DNA of 64,000 bases from Acidobacteriota bacterium (GTDB taxonomy: Bacteria > Acidobacteriota > Terriglobia > Acidiferrales > UBA7541): contig JABDEK010000014.1 in NCBI GenBank assembly GCA_013287135.1, forward strand, positions 1 through 64,000, given 5' to 3'. The position numbers and the translations under genes are program-made. Within the stretch, counting starts at the first letter, position 1; each line of letters starts with the position of its first letter. The notes beneath the pieces are model-generated. The model saw only the letters and a list, made by a program, of their open reading frames with translations, did no database searches and was not told the origin of the DNA. This document shows, piece by piece, positions 9,573 to 17,636 of the stretch.

Positions 9573-10910
9573 CTACGGCTTATCGGGCTGCGCGCCGGGG
9601 CGGATAAAGTATTTCCACTTGTCCAGATCGGGTCGGACCGCGACGTCGAAAAATCCCACCATCATTTCATCGTAAGTTTGGTCGCCCCATCGCACGGAAG
9701 CATCGGGATCGGGATTGTGCAAGTTGTTGCGTGAATTGTCGTATAACGCGACGGCCTGCAGCATGGTGCCGGCTTTCAGCAAGCGCGGTTCGGCTAACCG
9801 ATAGCTGAGCTGCCAGTAAAAATCATAATTCACGCGCAGAAGAGTTTCGATGTTTCCACTGGCGCCCACAATATTGTAGTCAAATTGTTTTCCACGCAGA
9901 TGCATATGCGGAAAAAAACTGAGCAGAGTCGCGTCGTTGGGAAGCGTGCCGCGCGCTTCCACCCGATAATTATCCGCGCCCGGTGGAATCACGAAGTGAT
10001 CGTTGGTCAGTTGCAGGGTGATCACGCGTTGCGTCGGCGGCTTGTTGGCGAAGACGATCCCGACGCCGGTCTGATCGCTGGCCGCGTGGCCGTGCGTGGT
10101 GTAATGCATCTGGAAAACCAAATCCGAACCGGCGGGAACGAATTTGGCCATCCCAGCGGGCCAATTATCCGGCGAGCTTCCGGGAGCGTACACCAGCAAA
10201 ATATCGCTGTCAGTCCAATGCGCGCCGTGCCGGCTATCTTCATCCGTCATATCGGAAGCGGTGAACGGCACGCCCACGGGCGCGTGCCTGAGCCATTTTG
10301 AATCGGGAGGACGAATATAAACTACGGCGTGATGCACATTTTCACGGGATGACGGGCGAATTTCCGACATCTGCACCCATTTATCTTCCGCGAAACCGGT
10401 CGGCGCGATTTCGTAGGTGTACTCGATATCGCCGTGAGCGGGCAGCGCGACTGGCTTTGGCATTTTGACGATTACGTCAGGCTGCGAAATATTCCATCCT
10501 TGTACCCATTCTCGCGGCGGCGGCGCGTCTTGGGCATCTCCTGCTGGCGCATGCGCGTCGGCCCACGCCACTATCTTTTGAATTTCCGCTTCGGTTAGCG
10601 AAGGATCGTTTGAGAAATGGCCGAAGCGCGGGTAGGCGAACCATGGCGGCATTTTTCTTTTGGCCACGGCAATCGCAATTTCGTGGGCGCGCGAGCGCAC
10701 ATCGTCGTAGCTGACCAGGGGCATCGGCGCAATTTCGCCGCTGCGGTGGCAGCTCTGGCAGTGCTGCTGAAGAATCGGAAGAAGGTCGCGGTAGAAAACT
10801 GGCGGCGTAACTCCATTGGGCTTTACCTGTACTCTTGTTACGCGGGCGTGCGCGGCGGCAAAAATCACCAGAACAATAGCTGTGGCGAGGGTTGATATTT
10901 TCAGCGGCAC
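9573..10910 (-). CDS. secreted monohaem cytochrome fused to copper-monooxygenase-like domain
   Basis: A signal peptide (ATAIVLVIFAAAHA) leads into a c-type haem domain with CQSCH and a downstream KMPPWFA segment likely to hold the distal methionine. The rest resembles the C-terminal half of copper type II ascorbate-dependent monooxygenases, with TDEDSRHGAHWTDSDIL, HYTTHG and PHMHLRGKQFDY. Proteins of this layout are frequent in acidobacteria and planctomycetes. Whether they are redox enzymes or electron carriers is not established. It is periplasmic by prediction. The gene is convergent with tldE and has no obvious operon partner upstream. Confidence 0.8.
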   Translation of the reverse strand: MPLKISTLATAIVLVIFAAAHARVTRVQVKPNGVTPPVFYRDLLPILQQHCQSCHRSGEIAPMPLVSYDDVRSRAHEIAIAVAKRKMPPWFAYPRFGHFSNDPSLTEAEIQKIVAWADAHAPAGDAQDAPPPREWVQGWNISQPDVIVKMPKPVALPAHGDIEYTYEIAPTGFAEDKWVQMSEIRPSSRENVHHAVVYIRPPDSKWLRHAPVGVPFTASDMTDEDSRHGAHWTDSDILLVYAPGSSPDNWPAGMAKFVPAGSDLVFQMHYTTHGHAASDQTGVGIVFANKPPTQRVITLQLTNDHFVIPPGADNYRVEARGTLPNDATLLSFFPHMHLRGKQFDYNIVGASGNIETLLRVNYDFYWQLSYRLAEPRLLKAGTMLQAVALYDNSRNNLHNPDPDASVRWGDQTYDEMMVGFFDVAVRPDLDKWKYFIRPGAQPDKP

Positions 10911-10965: not shown

Positions 10966-11946
10966 TCATTTGGTGAATTGAAGGCTGGAGATGGCGCGCG
11001 CGATGACGTTTTCTTGAATCTGCACCAAGTCCGTATCTGCGATGGTCATTCCGAATATGGTGTAGAGATGCGAGTCGTGGGGAATGTACACGACCACGCC
11101 GGACCAATCGCGCTGGTCAACGCTTCCGCGAAAATGGCGCTCGACGGCGGGTGCGCCGGAAATGGTGATGTGTTTTTCGTCCAGCGGTCGGAAGTTTTCC
11201 ATAATTTCGCGGAGGCGGCGATCGGTAGCATCCATGCTGTTGGCAACGGATTGTGATGTGCCGCTCTGCTGGCCGATCAAAAGATATGTCGTCTGATCGT
11301 CGGTGCCCATCGCGGTGATTGAGCCGGGCAGAAGCGCGCGCGCGCCTTCAATCACTTTCCACGCGGGCGGCTTGTACATGCGAAAACCGTAAGTGTCGTT
11401 GACGTAGCTGTTGCCGTTTACTTCCTCGCGCATGGGTTCGGGCGGCGCAGGTTTTACCGAAGCAGGCGGAGTTGTTGGCGGAGCGCTTGCAGTGGCGGGA
11501 TGGGCCGCAACAGCATTGGTTGCGGGTTTGCTCGCGGCTCCTGGCGCAGGGTTTGGCGAGCTTGAGCTGGATGATGCGACAGAATTTGTGGGAGCCGCTG
11601 AATTGTTCGCAACAGTCGGCGCTGGCTTTGAGGGTTTGGCGGCGGACGCGTCCGCGTCGGCTGATGCGTCTGCCGTGGGCTCGGATTTCTTGTCCGATTC
11701 TTTCTTTTTCGAGCCGGCAGATATTACGATCGATACGACTTGGTCTTTTTGCACTTCGGCGAAGCCGTAGCTTGTTTTCACTTTGAACGAATTTTCTTCA
11801 AATCCAACAATGGTGCCGCTTATGGTTGTGCCGTCTTTTAGTTTTAGCTCGTCGGCGCGCCCAGCGGGCAAATATGCGAAAAACGCGAGCGCCGCAATAG
11901 AAATTGCGCGCGTCAGTCCGCGGCGAAACTGTGAAACAAGAACCAT
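10966..11946 (-). CDS. secreted protein with Ala/Pro/Ser linker and PsbP/DcrB-like C-terminal domain
   Basis: This protein is not identified to a named family. A signal peptide (LTRAISIAALAFFAYLPAGRA) is followed by a small beta-rich segment (LKLKDGTTISGTIVGFEENS). This looks like an SH3/Sm-type barrel found in many Gram-negative envelope proteins. About 110 residues of Ala, Ser, Pro and Thr form a probably disordered linker. The last 140 residues (YGFRMYKPPAWKV... to SSLQFTK) resemble PsbP/DcrB-like domains. The ORF track starts at a TTG; the in-frame ATG at 11946 fits the signal peptide better and is used here (326 residues). Confidence 0.7.
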   Translation of the reverse strand: MVLVSQFRRGLTRAISIAALAFFAYLPAGRADELKLKDGTTISGTIVGFEENSFKVKTSYGFAEVQKDQVVSIVISAGSKKKESDKKSEPTADASADADASAAKPSKPAPTVANNSAAPTNSVASSSSSSPNPAPGAASKPATNAVAAHPATASAPPTTPPASVKPAPPEPMREEVNGNSYVNDTYGFRMYKPPAWKVIEGARALLPGSITAMGTDDQTTYLLIGQQSGTSQSVANSMDATDRRLREIMENFRPLDEKHITISGAPAVERHFRGSVDQRDWSGVVVYIPHDSHLYTIFGMTIADTDLVQIQENVIARAISSLQFTK

Positions 11947-12043
11947 ATATTGAAGTATGGCGCTCGAGGCCGTGGCGGGCAAGTTCGGGCGCGAAGACTA
12001 TGCCGGGTTAGTCAGCATGCGGCGGAGTTGACCTACTGCGGAC

Positions 12044-14089
12044 CTAGCGTGCACGCCGGGATTTTGCTTTTTGCTGGGTCTTCGATCCGGGCTTTGGCGA
12101 TGGAATAATCGCAAGAAGTTCCGGCTTTATCCGTGCGAATTCGGACTCGAGCGCGCGAAATTGGGGTCCAGCGTTAAACAAATGGCCGGAACGTCCCATG
12201 GCTTCCAGACCGCGCGCCATTGAAACTGCTTTCGCCGCGCCGAAGATTGCGATGGAGCCTTTTAAGGCATGTGCGGCGCTGGCGAGTTTCTGCGCGTCCT
12301 TCTTCGCAATGGCGCGGCGGATCCGAGAAAGAGTTTTGGGTGCGTCGGCCAGAAAAGTTTTGATCAGGGAGCGCTGGAGTTTTTTGTTTCCTCCCGTAGC
12401 GCGATGCAGATGCCCGGCGACGCTCTCGTCCTCTACCGCGGGTTGATGGGCGCTGGCAGGAGCCGGGACGTCAGGAGCGGATTGCGCTTCACCGATTTGC
12501 TGTGACTTTTCCGTCTGGTATTCGACGACCTGATACAACTTGTCCATGTGAACGGGCTTGGCTATGAAGGCGTCCATGCCCGCGTTGAGACAACGACGCG
12601 CGTCTTCGTCCGTTGCGTTTCCTGTGAAGCCGACAATACGAAGGTGGCGGCGAGTGGAAGTTTCCATTTTGCGAATCGCGCGAGTGGCGTCCAAGCCGTT
12701 CATGCGCGGCATTTCCTCGTCCATCAGGACAACGTCGAACGAATTACGATCGAGTGCGGCGAGAGCTTCGATTCCGTCGGCGGCAGTGGTGACCGAGTGG
12801 CCGCGCTTTGTAAGCAGCTCGCTAACGAGTTCGCGATTTATTTCGGTGTCTTCGGTGACGAGGATGCGCAGAAACTTTGCCGGCGGGCTGCGGCGAACAG
12901 TTGGCGGAGGCGCGACATTTGTGGCGCTATCTTCGTGTTCGTCTGCGGTTGTTCGTTCATACGATTTCGCGTCCGCGTCCGCGCGCGGGAGCCGAAACCA
13001 AAAGCGCGCGCCGCCTTGCGCGCGCGTTTCCGCGCCGATCGTTCCGCCCCAGCGTTCCACCGTGATCTTGCAGAAATAGAGGCCGAGGCCTGCTTTGCCG
13101 GAATGACCCTTACCTTTTGAGAAAAGGGCGAAGAGTTGAGTCGTCGGCAAATCCGGCGGGAGGCCGGGGCCTAGGTCATCCACGAAAGCGAGAACGCTTT
13201 CGCCTTGATCTTCCACGCCGATAGTGACCGTGGAATTGGGAGGACTGTGACGCAGAGTATTTTCGAGCAAGTTGCCGAAGATCCGATCCAGGCGCGGTGC
13301 ATCGCCGACTACATGCCAGTCCGATAAAGCGTTTGACGGAGGCGCGAAGCGAAGGTTGACGCCTTTGTCTTTGAACGCGGAAGAAAATTCCTCGATGGCT
13401 TGTTGAACGCAAACGGCCAGATCCGGTGGTGGCGCGCCGCTCTTATCCGCAGATCGCTGCGCGATGAGATCGCCGGAAAACGCGGAGAGGATGCTACGGA
13501 TCATCAATTCCTGGCGTTGCGATTCGCGCTGACCCGCTTCTACATATTTTTCAACCGGGGGAGGCAAATGTTCGAGGCGCAGCAAATTGAAGCAACCGCT
13601 GATGGCGGTAAGAGGTTGCGAAAGATCGTGAACGATGCAATGCAGCAGAATTTCTTTTTTTTGGATTTCGCTGAGGAGCTGCTCATGGGCCAGCAGGGAA
13701 TCGCGGGCGGTTTGGAACCATTGCTGTTGTTCGGCAAAGTGCGCGGCAAGATTGCGCAGGATCAGGATTCTCTTTTTCTCGAGGGAGAGAGCGAAGGCCT
13801 CGAGCGGAACTTCGCGGCCGCTTTTATCGCGTTCCATCCAGTTTCCCGAGCTGACCGAGCCTTCCGCTTGGGAGCTCCAGAAATCTTCGGCGTCCACCAG
13901 GAAATTTTCGAGGAAAGGAGACTTTTCGTCCAGACGCACGCGCGTTGCGTTGCGAGAATGCAATTCGAAGGTGTCGCGACACCATGCGGGGTAATCGCCA
14001 ATCGGAGAGAATTCCCCTTGGCCCAGCGATTCGAACAAAGCGTAACCCTGGCTGGTGAGGAACGATTCGAAAATAGAATTCGAGGACAT
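12044..14089 (-). CDS. soluble hybrid histidine kinase with REC and HPt domains
   Basis: The 681-residue protein has no membrane segment. Residues 1-120 are a PAS-like sensor region. The phospho-acceptor is in CIVHDLSQPLTAISG (His about 154). The ATPase domain has N (NLLENTLRHS), G1 (DDLGPGLP) and G2 (GKAGLGLYF) boxes. A receiver domain at about 410-525 carries ILVTEDTEINREL and VVLMDEEMPRMNG, and the HPt domain near 560-650 carries AAHALKGSIAIFGA. All elements of an internal His-Asp-His relay are intact. Its ATG directly abuts the TAA of the GTPase gene, implying coupled translation. No separate response regulator is nearby, so the output is unknown. The C terminus is basic (AKSRRAR). Confidence 0.92.
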   Translation of the reverse strand: MSSNSIFESFLTSQGYALFESLGQGEFSPIGDYPAWCRDTFELHSRNATRVRLDEKSPFLENFLVDAEDFWSSQAEGSVSSGNWMERDKSGREVPLEAFALSLEKKRILILRNLAAHFAEQQQWFQTARDSLLAHEQLLSEIQKKEILLHCIVHDLSQPLTAISGCFNLLRLEHLPPPVEKYVEAGQRESQRQELMIRSILSAFSGDLIAQRSADKSGAPPPDLAVCVQQAIEEFSSAFKDKGVNLRFAPPSNALSDWHVVGDAPRLDRIFGNLLENTLRHSPPNSTVTIGVEDQGESVLAFVDDLGPGLPPDLPTTQLFALFSKGKGHSGKAGLGLYFCKITVERWGGTIGAETRAQGGARFWFRLPRADADAKSYERTTADEHEDSATNVAPPPTVRRSPPAKFLRILVTEDTEINRELVSELLTKRGHSVTTAADGIEALAALDRNSFDVVLMDEEMPRMNGLDATRAIRKMETSTRRHLRIVGFTGNATDEDARRCLNAGMDAFIAKPVHMDKLYQVVEYQTEKSQQIGEAQSAPDVPAPASAHQPAVEDESVAGHLHRATGGNKKLQRSLIKTFLADAPKTLSRIRRAIAKKDAQKLASAAHALKGSIAIFGAAKAVSMARGLEAMGRSGHLFNAGPQFRALESEFARIKPELLAIIPSPKPGSKTQQKAKSRRAR

Positions 14090-14587
14090 TTATTCAGTCA
14101 GAGTGGCGGCGGCCAATTGTGAAAAAAGTTGTTCGACGGAAGCGCCGGTTTTGGCGCTGGTCCGAAGTATAATCCATCCAGCGGCGCTGAGTTCTGATTC
14201 GCGGTCGGAGTCGATCTCCCATCTATCGACTAAGTCACTCTTGTTCAAAACGAGGATCGCAGGAACCTTCCCGACTTCTTGCATTACGCGTTGGTTCAAG
14301 GCGAGAGCGTCTTCAAGGGTTTGGCGGCGCGTGCCGTCAATGACGAGCAGGTAGCCGGACATGCCGCGGAGATAGGACATGTGAATTTTCTGATACACAT
14401 CTTCGCCGTGAATGTCCCACAGAACCAGAGTTACGTCTTCGTTGTTTACGTGAACTACTTTCTTATCGACTTTTACACCGATGGAAGTTTGATACGCCTC
14501 GGAGAAAAGGCTTTCAACGAAACGGCGCACCAGGCTGGTTTTGCCTACGGAGAAGGAGCCTAACATGCAGATTTTCTTTTGGAGCAT
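14090..14587 (-). CDS. Ras/Rab-like small GTPase
   Basis: The 165-residue protein is essentially one G domain. It shows the P-loop GSFSVGKTS (10-18), a Rab-like switch I (YQTSIGVKV), G3 WDIHGED (58-62), G4 NKSD (115-118) and G5 TSAK (143-146). The residue matching the catalytic glutamine of Ras is glutamate (DxxGE). There is no C-terminal cysteine or tail for lipidation. It belongs to the prokaryotic Ras-superfamily proteins rather than to translation or Era-type GTPases. It lies 11 bp after the OmpA-domain gene and is stop-to-start fused with the kinase gene, so the three are almost certainly co-translated. It may cycle under control of the roadblock-like region next door; that is inference. 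Confidence 0.9.
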   Translation of the reverse strand: MLQKKICMLGSFSVGKTSLVRRFVESLFSEAYQTSIGVKVDKKVVHVNNEDVTLVLWDIHGEDVYQKIHMSYLRGMSGYLLVIDGTRRQTLEDALALNQRVMQEVGKVPAILVLNKSDLVDRWEIDSDRESELSAAGWIILRTSAKTGASVEQLFSQLAAATLTE

Positions 14588-14598
14588 TCGGCGCTCGC

Positions 14599-16380
14599 TT
14601 AGTTTCCGGACGAGGGTGGAGTGAAAGTGATCCTAAAAGTGACGCTGCGATTCAGGCGGCGGCTTTCTTCGGTGTCTTCAGGACGCAAAGGTTGCGTAGC
14701 ACCGACGCCGCGCGTGTGCAAATTCGCAGCTGGAGCGCCGCCGCGGACCAGAGCGCCGCGAATATTGTCGGCGCGCTCCTGGCTGAGCAGCATGTTCGTG
14801 CCCTCGATGCCGGTGCTGTCACTGTGGCCGGTGAGTTCGACGGTTGTTTGTTCACCCAGACGGCTGGCCCTGTAGACAATTTCGCGGATTCCTTTTTGAA
14901 TTTGAGCGAAGGTGTTTTCCTGGCCCGCTTCCAGTTCGGCGCGGCCAATGGGGAAGACGAGTATCACGGATTCGACGGCGCTTTTCGGCGCGTTGAGCTG
15001 CAACAGATGCGAATTCTGAAGATGAGATGTATCGACCGACGCCACTCCGGCAATATAAGGCGCGCGTTCCTGAACGCGCGAGATCCACTGAGGCGAGGCG
15101 GTCCCTTCCACATGCAACTCGCCGTGATTTTCGGAAAGTGTGACGCCTTCTGGCGGATGCAATAATTGGCGAGCGCGCTGCGCTACCATGGAGTCGTCCA
15201 AAGAATAGTAAGGAGCTAAATCGAACTGGGCGTTTTGCGGATCGAGGCCTGCTTGTTTGAGCAAGGTATTCGGATCTGGCGCGAGGGGATCCTTGAAGCC
15301 TTGTATGTGGTAGCGGCCGCCTTCGCGGCCGTAGGAAATAACCACGATGCCGGGCTGTCCGCGAACAGCGTGAAGAAAACGCGACCATTCGTACCTTAGA
15401 TACATCGAGTAGCCAAAATAGGCGACGAGCAGGACGCCGAGTATCGCTAAGGTTGCGAGCGCGGCGCTCGGTCTCTTTTTTGCTGCGGGTTCGCGATGCC
15501 GCGCGGCGAGAAGACGTATTAACGGTTCTTCGGCGGAGAGAAATGGCGCGGCGTCGCCTTTGAAATTTTCCAACGCCGAACTGTAGCGCTGCTGAATTTC
15601 TTCGAGGGCTTCTTTCATCGTGAGGCGATAATCCGACGGAGCGTGTCCGCGAATTACGGCGGCGAGCACTGCGTCAGGGCCTTCTTCGATCCAGACTTCA
15701 AGTTCGCCAACGTTCAAACTGTCGAGCGATTCTTCATTCTTGGAATCGAAAGAATCCCGCACGAACTGCTGAATCGCGGAGAGCATGCCCGCGACCAGGG
15801 AAGCATCCTGCGTGGCGACTTGACGCGCGACGACGTGGCTGAGGACGAGTCCAGTGTGTCGATGAATCAGGAAGACTTGCTCCACGCGAAACAGCAGGCT
15901 GTGCATCAGCACGATTTCGGCGAAAGGTTTTCCGGTACGAAGAGCTTCGATTCGCCATTTGATTCCGCGGGCGGAAAGGCTGTGTTCGAGAGCTTCGTTG
16001 AATGACTCGAGCATGCCGCGAAGGGCCTCGCTGATCGATTTCCGGATAGCGGGACCCATCACGGGGAACAAGGCATCGGCCAGAGGGTGTGGGTCGTGGC
16101 GAACGGACTCGCGGAGAGTTTCCTGCACGGTGGGGGCCAAGGCCTGGGCCAAGGCGCGTTCGCCATGCTGATCGCGGCGCATGCTGATGGCTTCGGCGAC
16201 TACCGAGCTGACATCCCGCGTGCGCCGAGCGCGATCGTCGAGACGCTCTTGTATGTCCGCAAGCTCTTCCTGCTCGGGCGCGATGATTAAGTGGCGGAGC
16301 TCTTCGTAGGCGTGATTATTGGCTGAAGGATTTTCTTCCGTTTGATTGTCGGGAGCGCGGCGATGTGCTTGGTCGGCCAT
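14599..16380 (-). CDS. single-pass membrane protein: cytoplasmic roadblock/longin-like region and periplasmic OmpA domain
   Basis: The 593-residue protein has a soluble N-terminal half and one membrane helix at about 306-326 (ALATLAILGVLLVAYFG). A periplasmic part follows, with two BON-like stretches (about 340-450) and a C-terminal OmpA/MotB peptidoglycan-binding domain (about 470-585; LTGHSDSTGIEG, LSQERADNIR, LNRSV). Residues about 164-245 (FRVEQVFLIHRHTGLVL ... GELEVWIEEGPDAVLAAVI) have the beta-helix-beta pattern and hydrophobic spacing of longin/roadblock modules, which in other systems bind or stimulate small GTPases. That assignment is by eye. The adjacent GTPase makes it attractive. 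Topology suggests a link from the cell wall to cytoplasmic signalling. Confidence 0.82.
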   Translation of the reverse strand: MADQAHRRAPDNQTEENPSANNHAYEELRHLIIAPEQEELADIQERLDDRARRTRDVSSVVAEAISMRRDQHGERALAQALAPTVQETLRESVRHDPHPLADALFPVMGPAIRKSISEALRGMLESFNEALEHSLSARGIKWRIEALRTGKPFAEIVLMHSLLFRVEQVFLIHRHTGLVLSHVVARQVATQDASLVAGMLSAIQQFVRDSFDSKNEESLDSLNVGELEVWIEEGPDAVLAAVIRGHAPSDYRLTMKEALEEIQQRYSSALENFKGDAAPFLSAEEPLIRLLAARHREPAAKKRPSAALATLAILGVLLVAYFGYSMYLRYEWSRFLHAVRGQPGIVVISYGREGGRYHIQGFKDPLAPDPNTLLKQAGLDPQNAQFDLAPYYSLDDSMVAQRARQLLHPPEGVTLSENHGELHVEGTASPQWISRVQERAPYIAGVASVDTSHLQNSHLLQLNAPKSAVESVILVFPIGRAELEAGQENTFAQIQKGIREIVYRASRLGEQTTVELTGHSDSTGIEGTNMLLSQERADNIRGALVRGGAPAANLHTRGVGATQPLRPEDTEESRRLNRSVTFRITFTPPSSGN

Positions 16381-16458: not shown

Positions 16459-17019
16459 CTACTCTTCGGGCAATTCGAACTTGTTCTTCAGGCGCAGAGA
16501 GAATTCATTGAACAAGTCCGCGAGAGACGCGCGATCGGTTTTTTCGTCGCGCAGGACGTCCACTTCGCGATTCAGCGCGGCAGTGGTTTCGCGGCGCAGC
16601 TTGTCGATTTCCGCGGAGACGGATTTGGAATGCTCGAGAAGCTTTGCGCGAAGCTCGCTTTGCCCGTCCGACATCTGCTCTTCGAGCTGCGAAAGCTTTT
16701 TCTCGATAATTTTGGCCCCGTCCTTGATTTCGCGCGAAATTTCTTTGAGCCCTTCGCTGCGCTCGGACTTTTCGCTCTTTACGCGCGTGCTTAGGGAATC
16801 GACTTCTTGCCGCACGAACGCGCCCAGGGTATCGAGGCGCTTGGTCATGTCTTCGCGAAGGCCTTCGATGGCTTTGGTGACGTTGTCTTCCAGGCGCACG
16901 AAACGTTTTTCATAATCGCGCATCTGCGAACCGAACAAAATATCGCGTATTTTGTCTACATTTGCGCCTTCCGGAGCTTCTTTATTTGACGGATTAGGGT
17001 CTTTCGCCGCGGATGCCAT
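16459..17019 (-). CDS. predicted coiled-coil protein, first gene of the OmpA-GTPase-kinase cassette
   Basis: This gene is not assigned to a known family. After a short Pro/Ser/Asn-rich N terminus, most of the 186 residues form charged heptads (RLEDNVTKAIEGLREDM; KIIEKKLSQLEEQMSDG), predicting a long parallel coiled coil. No signal peptide or membrane helix is seen, so it is probably cytoplasmic. The ORF track begins at 17088. The ATG at 17019 is preceded by AAGGAGAGG at ideal distance and is chosen instead. It reads into the OmpA-domain gene after 78 bp and is likely the first gene of the transcript. Confidence 0.8.
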   Translation of the reverse strand: MASAAKDPNPSNKEAPEGANVDKIRDILFGSQMRDYEKRFVRLEDNVTKAIEGLREDMTKRLDTLGAFVRQEVDSLSTRVKSEKSERSEGLKEISREIKDGAKIIEKKLSQLEEQMSDGQSELRAKLLEHSKSVSAEIDKLRRETTAALNREVDVLRDEKTDRASLADLFNEFSLRLKNKFELPEE

Positions 17020-17167
17020 TTTGCGACCTCTCCTTTTCGGACTCTTGATCCCCTGCCTGCGGGACGTTCGGCTGGCTTTTTGGGGCATGCGCCGGAGGCT
17101 ACTACGAAAGCCGTTTTACCGCAACAGGACGAGCGATCTGGGCGATCTGGCCCTCGGGAGGGGCTAT

Positions 17168-17219: not shown

Positions 17220-17636
17220 ATGAGCAACCACCCAAAATTATTTACGCCACGCGAAGCGGCGCAAGTGCTGGGAGTCAGCTACCCTACGGTGAAGCAGTGG
17301 ATCTATAAGCGCAAGATTAAAACGGTGAAGACGGCCGGCGGCCATCACCGGGTGCCGGAAAAAGAAGTGGACCGGTTCTTGTATCGCGAATCGGACCGCG
17401 CAGAAGTCCCGGCGCGCCGCAGCAATTACCGGCGCATCAGCGGGCGCAATCAACTGGTGGGACGCGTAACGGACGTGAAGCTAGGCGGTCTGATGGCGCA
17501 AGTGAGCATTTCGATTGGCGGGCAGCACATCACCTCCATTATTACGGCAGATGCGGTGCGCGAAATGCGACTCCAGAAAGGCCAGAAAGTGGCCGCGCTT
17601 GTGAAATCCACGGAAGTAATGATCATCCGCATTTGA
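17220..17636 (+). CDS. MerR/excisionase-type HTH fused to molybdate-binding TOBE (Mop) domain
   Basis: The 138-residue protein has an N-terminal winged helix-turn-helix of the excisionase/MerR type (TPREAAQVLGVSYPTVKQWI; AGGHHRVPEKEVDRFL). A basic linker (ARRSNYRRISGRNQ) leads to a C-terminal Mop/TOBE domain (LVGRVTDVKLGGLMAQVSI ... STEVMIIRI). TOBE domains bind molybdate or tungstate, so this is probably a cytoplasmic oxyanion-responsive regulator or storage protein. A molybdenum hydroxylase operon lies 26 kb away in this window, but no direct link is visible. It is divergent from the OmpA-GTPase cassette. The downstream porin has its own promoter. Confidence 0.88.
   Translation: MSNHPKLFTPREAAQVLGVSYPTVKQWIYKRKIKTVKTAGGHHRVPEKEVDRFLYRESDRAEVPARRSNYRRISGRNQLVGRVTDVKLGGLMAQVSISIGGQHITSIITADAVREMRLQKGQKVAALVKSTEVMIIRI

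What the first reader, a model, noticed from the sequence alone, without database searches (positions are those of the whole stretch)
15620..15900. Possible roadblock/longin-like module fused to an OmpA membrane protein
Residues about 164-245 read as strand-strand-helix-strand-strand (EQVFLIHRHTGLVL ... ELEVWIEEGPDAVLAAVI), like MglB/roadblock or longin domains that regulate small GTPases. Fusion of such a module through one membrane helix to an OmpA domain would be an unusual GTPase-regulator design.
Basis: inference. Interest (0 to 1): 0.7.

Follow-up and report, generated by a model that had tools for sequence, protein, structure and literature searches.

The report
Roadblock-like domain in Rup GTPase operon
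A wall-anchored membrane protein of this acidobacterium carries an inner domain predicted to be shaped like the helper proteins (MglB, Ragulator, longins) that control Ras/Rab-type GTPases, and it sits in an operon with exactly such a GTPase, which suggests how a little-studied bacterial GTPase signalling system is held at the cell envelope.

Summary
Residues 147-272 of the 593-aa minus-strand protein (window 15565-15942) are predicted as helix-strand-strand-helix-strand-strand-strand-helix in two AlphaFold2 runs. In both, Foldseek's top 50 PDB matches are longin/roadblock-superfold proteins (MglB, MglC, Ragulator, Rag C-terminal domains, AP sigma, Sec22b; probability 0.95-1.00). One transmembrane helix and a peptidoglycan-binding OmpA domain follow. 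Sequence methods (Pfam, PDB hmmsearch, hhalign) do not see the relationship, so this is a fold-level assignment. The gene lies in an operon with a coiled-coil protein, a Rab-like small GTPase and a hybrid histidine kinase: the Group 1 Rup neighbourhood described in 2014, where this domain was called unknown and no Rup was coupled to MglB. Domain and Rup GTPase occur in exactly the same 16 of 297 Acidobacteriota genomes, and also in Rhizobium, Mesorhizobium and Nostoc. Best reading: an envelope-anchored roadblock/longin platform that binds and regulates Rup, which controls a swappable output (histidine kinase, GGDEF, nucleotide cyclase, sigma-54 activator). GTPase binding and GAP/GEF activity are inferred, not shown. 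The operon is known; the fold of its unknown domain appears new in the papers searched.

The parts
16459..17088 (-). first gene of the operon: 209-aa coiled-coil cytoplasmic protein (motif IRDILFGSQMRDYEKRF)
   Evidence: homologue directly upstream of the OmpA fusion gene in all 27 loci compared
14599..16380 (-). 593-aa roadblock/longin-like - TM - periplasmic spacer - OmpA protein
15943..16380 (-). residues 1-146: cytosolic helical region with degenerate repeats (ALAPTVQETLRESV.../ALFPVMGPAIRKSI...)
   Evidence: alignment; residues 62-146 predicted helical at low confidence; residues 1-61 not modelled
15565..15942 (-). residues 147-272: roadblock/longin-like domain, alpha-beta2-alpha-beta3-alpha
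   Evidence: AlphaFold2 pLDDT 76, pTM 0.65; Foldseek PDB top 50 all roadblock/longin superfold (also from the longer model)
15397..15468 (-). residues 305-328: single transmembrane helix, N-terminus inside by the positive-inside rule (AAKKRP before it)
   Evidence: hydropathy and charge; hydrophobic stretch at the same place in all 27 homologues
14947..15396 (-). residues 329-478: periplasmic spacer (BON-like in the Nostoc homologue)
   Evidence: TM-to-GHxD distance 174-197 aa in 20 of 27 homologues, 133-134 in two, 601 aa (module repeated four times) in the two rhizobia
14647..14946 (-). residues 479-578: OmpA-like peptidoglycan-binding domain; D521 of GHSD and R536 of SQERAD in the place of the two diaminopimelate contacts
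   Evidence: Pfam PF00691 E 2e-13, genome search, motif positions
14090..14587 (-). 165-aa Rab/Ras-like small GTPase (Group 1 Rup type), G1 GSFSVGKT, G3 WDIHGED (no Gln61), G4 NKSD, G5 TSAK
   Evidence: Pfam Ras E 2e-29; best PDB match Rab23 E 5.5e-26; motif table
12044..14089 (-). 681-aa hybrid histidine kinase-receiver-Hpt output protein with N-terminal domain of the Rup operon type
   Evidence: invariant Gln126 at the end of the N-terminal domain aligned in 21 of 22 output proteins

Best explanation
The 593-aa protein is the envelope anchor and GTPase platform of a Group 1 Rup signalling system. Its OmpA domain holds peptidoglycan, a single helix crosses the inner membrane, and its cytosolic roadblock/longin-like domain (probably as a dimer) binds the neighbouring Rab-like Rup GTPase and sets its nucleotide state or place, as MglB does for MglA or Ragulator for Rags. 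Rup then acts on the N-terminal domain of the operon's output protein, here a hybrid histidine kinase and elsewhere a GGDEF protein, nucleotide cyclase or sigma-54 activator. Shown: operon, co-occurrence, domain order, GTPase motifs. Predicted: roadblock/longin fold. Inferred: GTPase binding, dimerisation, GAP/GEF or recruitment role, direction of signal, and that the state of the envelope is the input.
For: Two AlphaFold2 runs from 24- and 47-sequence alignments give the same topology. The Foldseek top 50 is longin/roadblock superfold both times, including MglB 3t12/3t1r/3t1s, MglC, p14/MP1, Rag C-terminal domains, Asgard roadblocks, AP sigma (TM 0.60), Sec22b (TM 0.67, rmsd 2.8 A). Gene order coiled coil - fusion - GTPase - output is kept across Acidobacteriota, rhizobia and Nostoc. 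Fusion protein and Rup GTPase occur in the same 16 of 297 genomes; among nearer relatives the only two GTPases without a full partner lie at contig ends, with the cut-off 3' end of the fusion gene beside them. The own genome has no Pfam roadblock protein. Rup lacks Gln61 (Glu in 24 of 27), so help in trans is plausible. Published: roadblock/longin dimers are platforms for small GTPases (PMC10933270).
Against: No sequence-level support: no Pfam roadblock hit in 27 members, no PDB sequence match, hhalign to Robl_LC7 equalled by 20 of 200 column-shuffled decoys. Models are moderate (pLDDT 76, pTM 0.65) with Foldseek E-values near 1e-3. No complex could be modelled and no binding residue tested. 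The 2014 authors proposed the output protein's invariant Gln as the possible GAP residue. In one genome (G084) the GTPase is not next to the fusion gene.
Confidence: 0.62

Rival explanations
1. The domain has the roadblock/longin fold but only recruits: it is a passive membrane scaffold (Ragulator-like) that places Rup beside the wall, while the output protein's N-terminal domain with its invariant Gln is the GAP.
For: Invariant Gln in the output N-terminal region aligned in 21 of 22, proposed as a trans-catalytic residue in PMC4316618; Rup lacks Gln61; many roadblock/longin proteins are platforms.
Against: MglB, the bacterial precedent, is itself a GAP/GEF (PMC11016934); nothing here separates scaffold from GAP/GEF.
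Confidence: 0.27
2. The domain is a roadblock/longin-like fold used only for dimerisation or for binding the coiled-coil protein, not the GTPase.
For: The coiled-coil gene is as tightly linked as the GTPase; the superfold also serves non-GTPase roles such as dynein light chain, SNARE and adaptor subunits.
Against: Exact co-occurrence with a Rab-like GTPase and the usual pairing of this fold with small GTPases.
Confidence: 0.1
3. The predicted fold is wrong; the region is another module, such as a DotU/TssL-like or PAS-like domain ahead of an OmpA anchor.
For: Moderate model confidence and no sequence match to roadblock families; long-form TssL also has TM plus OmpA, and a sub-threshold DotU hit exists (E 0.2, residues 251-326).
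Against: The DotU hit lies mostly outside the domain and below cut-off; the TssL match covers the OmpA part only; DotU is all-helical (own knowledge); no PAS or other fold appears in the top 50 of either Foldseek search.
Confidence: 0.08

Closest known systems
Group 1 Rup GTPase neighbourhood (Wuichet and Sogaard-Andersen 2014, PMC4316618)
   Same: Same four genes: Rup GTPase lacking the G3 Gln, coiled-coil protein, unknown domain-TM-OmpA protein, output module with invariant N-terminal Gln. This locus fits it on every feature tested.
   Different: There the domain was 'of unknown function', not matching Pfam, and Rup was scored as coupled to MglB in 0 of 121 cases. Here the domain gets a roadblock/longin fold, and the range of outputs widens (sigma-54 activator, nucleotide cyclase, short N-terminal domain alone).
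MglA/MglB polarity switch (Myxococcus, Thermus)
   Same: Small Ras-like GTPase encoded with a roadblock-fold partner.
   Different: MglB is a soluble stand-alone protein found by the Robl_LC7 profile; here the module is fused through a TM helix to OmpA and not recognisable by sequence. Rup has the canonical G3 Asp, which MglA lacks (PMC3000849 abstract; PMC4316618).
Actinobacterial conservon (CvnA-D)
   Same: Histidine kinase + roadblock protein + unknown protein + small GTPase in one operon; the 2014 authors already drew the analogy.
   Different: CvnB is a free MglB homologue and the GTPase is MglA-type; no OmpA anchor.
Eukaryotic/Asgard Ragulator-Rag, TRAPP, Mon1-Ccz1 longin/roadblock platforms for Rab/Rag GTPases
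   Same: Roadblock/longin modules at a membrane handling Rab-family GTPases; the window Rup is closest to Rabs among solved structures.
   Different: Separate subunits on organelle membranes; here one bitopic protein tied to peptidoglycan.
Long-form TssL (T6SS), MotB and Pal
   Same: OmpA peptidoglycan anchor, in TssL and MotB after an inner-membrane helix.
   Different: Cytosolic part unrelated; no type VI or motor genes noted beside this operon.

Membership tests
Roadblock/LC7 (Pfam PF03259) | Sequence match to the family profile | tested here: not met
   No hit in any of 27 members; hhalign equalled by 20 of 200 decoys; genome search with PF03259 does not ring in the own genome
Roadblock/LC7 (Pfam PF03259) | alpha1-beta1-beta2-alpha2-beta3-beta4-beta5-alpha3 topology | tested here: met
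   Predicted elements in that order, the first helix at lower confidence (pLDDT about 62-65); MglB, MglC, p14/MP1, Ego3 among top Foldseek matches
Roadblock/LC7 (Pfam PF03259) | Homo- or heterodimer with a shared beta-sheet | not testable with these tools
   No multimer prediction available
Longin | beta2-alpha-beta3-alpha core without a preceding alpha1, helices after strand 5 | tested here: inconclusive
   Core superposes as well or better on longins (Sec22b TM 0.67, AP sigma 0.60) but the conserved preceding helix favours roadblock
Group 1 Rup system | Ras-superfamily GTPase under 240 aa with G3 Asp and no catalytic Gln | tested here: met
   165 aa, WDIHGED; Glu in 24 of 27 homologues
Group 1 Rup system | Neighbours: coiled-coil protein, unknown domain-TM-OmpA protein, signalling output | tested here: met
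Group 1 Rup system | Invariant Gln in the output protein's N-terminal region | tested here: met
   Gln126 aligned in 21 of 22
Group 1 Rup system | Placement in the Rup clade by phylogeny | not tested
   No tree with the published Rup/MglA set was built; M. loti has a Group 1 Rup and a Mesorhizobium plasmid holds the homologous operon (L016)
OmpA-like peptidoglycan-binding domain | PF00691 match and the Asp/Arg pair that contacts diaminopimelate | tested here: met
   E 2e-13; D521 in GHSD and R536 in SQERAD (role of the pair from own knowledge)
GTPase regulator (GAP/GEF) | Changes GTP hydrolysis or exchange of the cognate GTPase | not testable with these tools
   Needs biochemistry

The most novel reading that the evidence does not exclude
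Rup GTPases, reported as the prokaryotic Ras branch without MglB partners, do have a roadblock/longin partner; it was missed because it has diverged beyond sequence recognition and is fused to a peptidoglycan anchor. Pairing of this fold with Ras-like GTPases would then extend to the bacterial branch closest to Rab/Ras, as a wall-anchored receptor that feeds a small GTPase into interchangeable histidine-kinase, c-di-GMP, cyclic-nucleotide or sigma-54 outputs.
Probability: 0.55. Interest if true: 0.8.

Novelty: new variant of a known kind. Interest (0 to 1): 0.62.

Why it matters
Group 1 Rup GTPases are the bacterial GTPases grouped closest to the eukaryotic Rab/Ras/Rho/Ran set, and in 2014 none had been characterised experimentally; the held papers searched name no later study. 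A roadblock/longin module built into their operon partner gives a concrete candidate for how they are held at the envelope and regulated, brings them in line with MglA-MglB, conservons and Ragulator, and makes a direct test possible with two small soluble proteins.

Tried and rejected
Sequence-only homology to Robl_LC7: an alignment of 33 Acidobacteriota roadblock loci was compared profile to profile; the match falls in the expected strand1-strand2-helix2 register (P about 0.08 against 0.31-0.36 for reversed controls), but 20 of 200 column-shuffled decoys scored as high, so it is not counted as evidence. DotU/T6SS reading: sub-threshold hit only. PDB sequence search: nothing. Viral-contig search for relatives: none. 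Reaching other phyla through the genome search with plasmid loci as centre was not possible, so the range outside Acidobacteriota rests on plasmid records.

Full report
WHAT IS THERE. The finding's coordinates (15620-15900) fall on the minus strand inside ORF 16380..14599, 593 aa, as residues 161-254. The protein is one of four minus-strand genes in a row with short gaps: 17088..16459 (209-aa coiled coil), 16380..14599 (the fusion), 14587..14090 (165-aa Ras/Rab-like GTPase, Pfam Ras 2e-29) and 14089..12044 (681-aa histidine kinase-receiver-Hpt). The fusion protein has a cytosolic part of about 300 residues, one hydrophobic helix at 305-328 preceded by positive residues, a spacer, and an OmpA domain at 479-578.

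IS THE DOMAIN REAL AND CONSERVED. Homologues of the cytosolic part were found in 9 of 61 near relatives, 16 of 297 genomes across the phylum, 31 of 162 and 5 of 193 genomes of two other classes of the phylum, and on plasmids of Rhizobium, Mesorhizobium and Nostoc. Across 47 Acidobacteriota copies the domain keeps L162, E167, L171, L180, A202, D209, G245 and P248 without exception (positions shifted by 146). Every one of 27 copies examined has a hydrophobic helix 36-47 residues after the domain, and the stretch from that helix to the OmpA motif is nearly constant (174-197 aa in 20 of 27, 133-134 in two, motif not found in three) except in the two rhizobia, where the module is repeated four times (601 aa).

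FOLD. AlphaFold2 on residues 62-265 with 24 homologues gave pLDDT about 57-86 over the domain and the order helix, two strands, helix, three strands, helix. A second run on residues 147-272 with 47 homologues gave mean pLDDT 76, pTM 0.65 and the same order. Foldseek against the PDB returned longin/roadblock-superfold proteins among the 50 best for each model: Rag C-terminal domains and Ragulator subunits, folliculin-complex chains, MglB, MglC, Ego3, p14/MP1, axonemal LC7-type chains, Asgard roadblocks, AP sigma and mu chains, zeta-COP, Mon1-Ccz1, Sec22b. Their E-values run from 4e-4 to 8e-3 with probability 0.95-1.00; the best TM-scores are 0.67 (Sec22b) and about 0.6 (MglB, AP sigma). Whether it is a roadblock or a longin is not settled: the conserved helix before strand 1 points to roadblock, while the superposition is as good on longins. 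Sequence methods see nothing: no Pfam hit in 27 members, no PDB sequence match, and a profile comparison with 33 real Acidobacteriota roadblocks that shuffled decoys equal in 20 of 200 trials.

WHAT SYSTEM IT BELONGS TO. Wuichet and Sogaard-Andersen (2014, PMC4316618; [quoted passage not shown] They found no Rup coupled to MglB, and supposed an unknown GAP because Group 1 Rups lack the catalytic glutamine. The window locus meets the features that could be tested: G3 is WDIHGED (Glu in place of Gln in 24 of 27 homologues), the output protein has the Gln (position 126, aligned in 21 of 22), and the gene order coiled coil - fusion - GTPase - output holds in nearly all of 27 loci (one reordered, L087; one with the GTPase elsewhere beside a second output-type gene, G084). 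The outputs vary: hybrid or plain histidine kinases, GGDEF, guanylate/adenylate cyclase, sigma-54 activator, PAS with a neighbouring FHA-GAF gene, or a short N-terminal domain alone.

CO-OCCURRENCE. In the 297-genome sample the fusion protein and the Rup GTPase were found in the identical set of 16 genomes. In 61 near relatives the GTPase was found in 11 and the fusion's cytosolic part in 9; in the two extra genomes the GTPase sits at a contig end with the cut-off C-terminal piece of the fusion protein beside it. Linked genes travel together, so this shows a unit, not contact. The own genome (79% complete) shows no Pfam roadblock protein that could serve Rup instead.

HOW IT MOST LIKELY WORKS. 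Shown: operon, domain order, co-occurrence, GTPase motifs. Predicted: the roadblock/longin fold. Inferred: the wall-anchored protein offers a roadblock/longin surface, probably dimeric, to Rup at the inner membrane; this sets Rup's nucleotide state or position; Rup then acts on the N-terminal domain of the output protein. Precedents are MglA-MglB (GAP and GEF), the conservon (roadblock + GTPase + kinase) and roadblock/longin platforms for Rab and Rag GTPases. The constant spacer and OmpA anchor fit a sensor of the envelope, but no input is known. Whether help with GTP hydrolysis comes from this domain or from the output protein's glutamine is open.

NOVELTY AND LIMITS. The operon and the TM-OmpA build are known; the fold of the unknown domain, and hence a roadblock/longin partner for Rup, was not found in the held literature. 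Subscription papers and most preprints were not searchable, and no library of predicted cellular structures was on hand, so someone may have noted it. Model confidence is moderate, no complex was modelled, and nothing was measured.

Noticed in passing
L015:5857-8922 and L016:5857-8922 (rhizobial homologues): The periplasmic spacer module of about 150 aa is repeated four times in tandem (601 aa from membrane to OmpA) where Acidobacteriota and Nostoc have about 190 aa, as if reach through the envelope were tuned.
   Followed up: partly
L017:5800-6500 (Nostoc) and window 15943-16200: The cytosolic helical region before the roadblock-like domain is built of degenerate repeats of about 22 residues (V.DAI.P.IG.AI...I); Nostoc has more of them than the window protein.
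   Followed up: no
L075:4647-6416: Rup operon whose output protein is a sigma-54 activator (PAS, AAA+, Fis-type HTH), a direct transcriptional output not mentioned in the 2014 main text.
   Followed up: partly
L076 and L129 (genome G084): The only locus without an adjacent Rup GTPase: coiled coil and fusion gene are followed by a PAS-type output and an FHA-GAF gene, while the GTPase sits on another contig next to a second output-type gene.
   Followed up: partly
L077:5893-7112 (genome G121): Two different Rup-type GTPase genes in tandem behind one fusion gene.
   Followed up: no
window 17220-17636: Divergent gene next to the operon encodes an HTH_17-TOBE protein, the build of a molybdate- or oxyanion-binding regulator.
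   Followed up: no
window 9573-10910 and 10966-11982: Two minus-strand ORFs downstream of the operon without any Pfam match at 1e-5.
   Followed up: no
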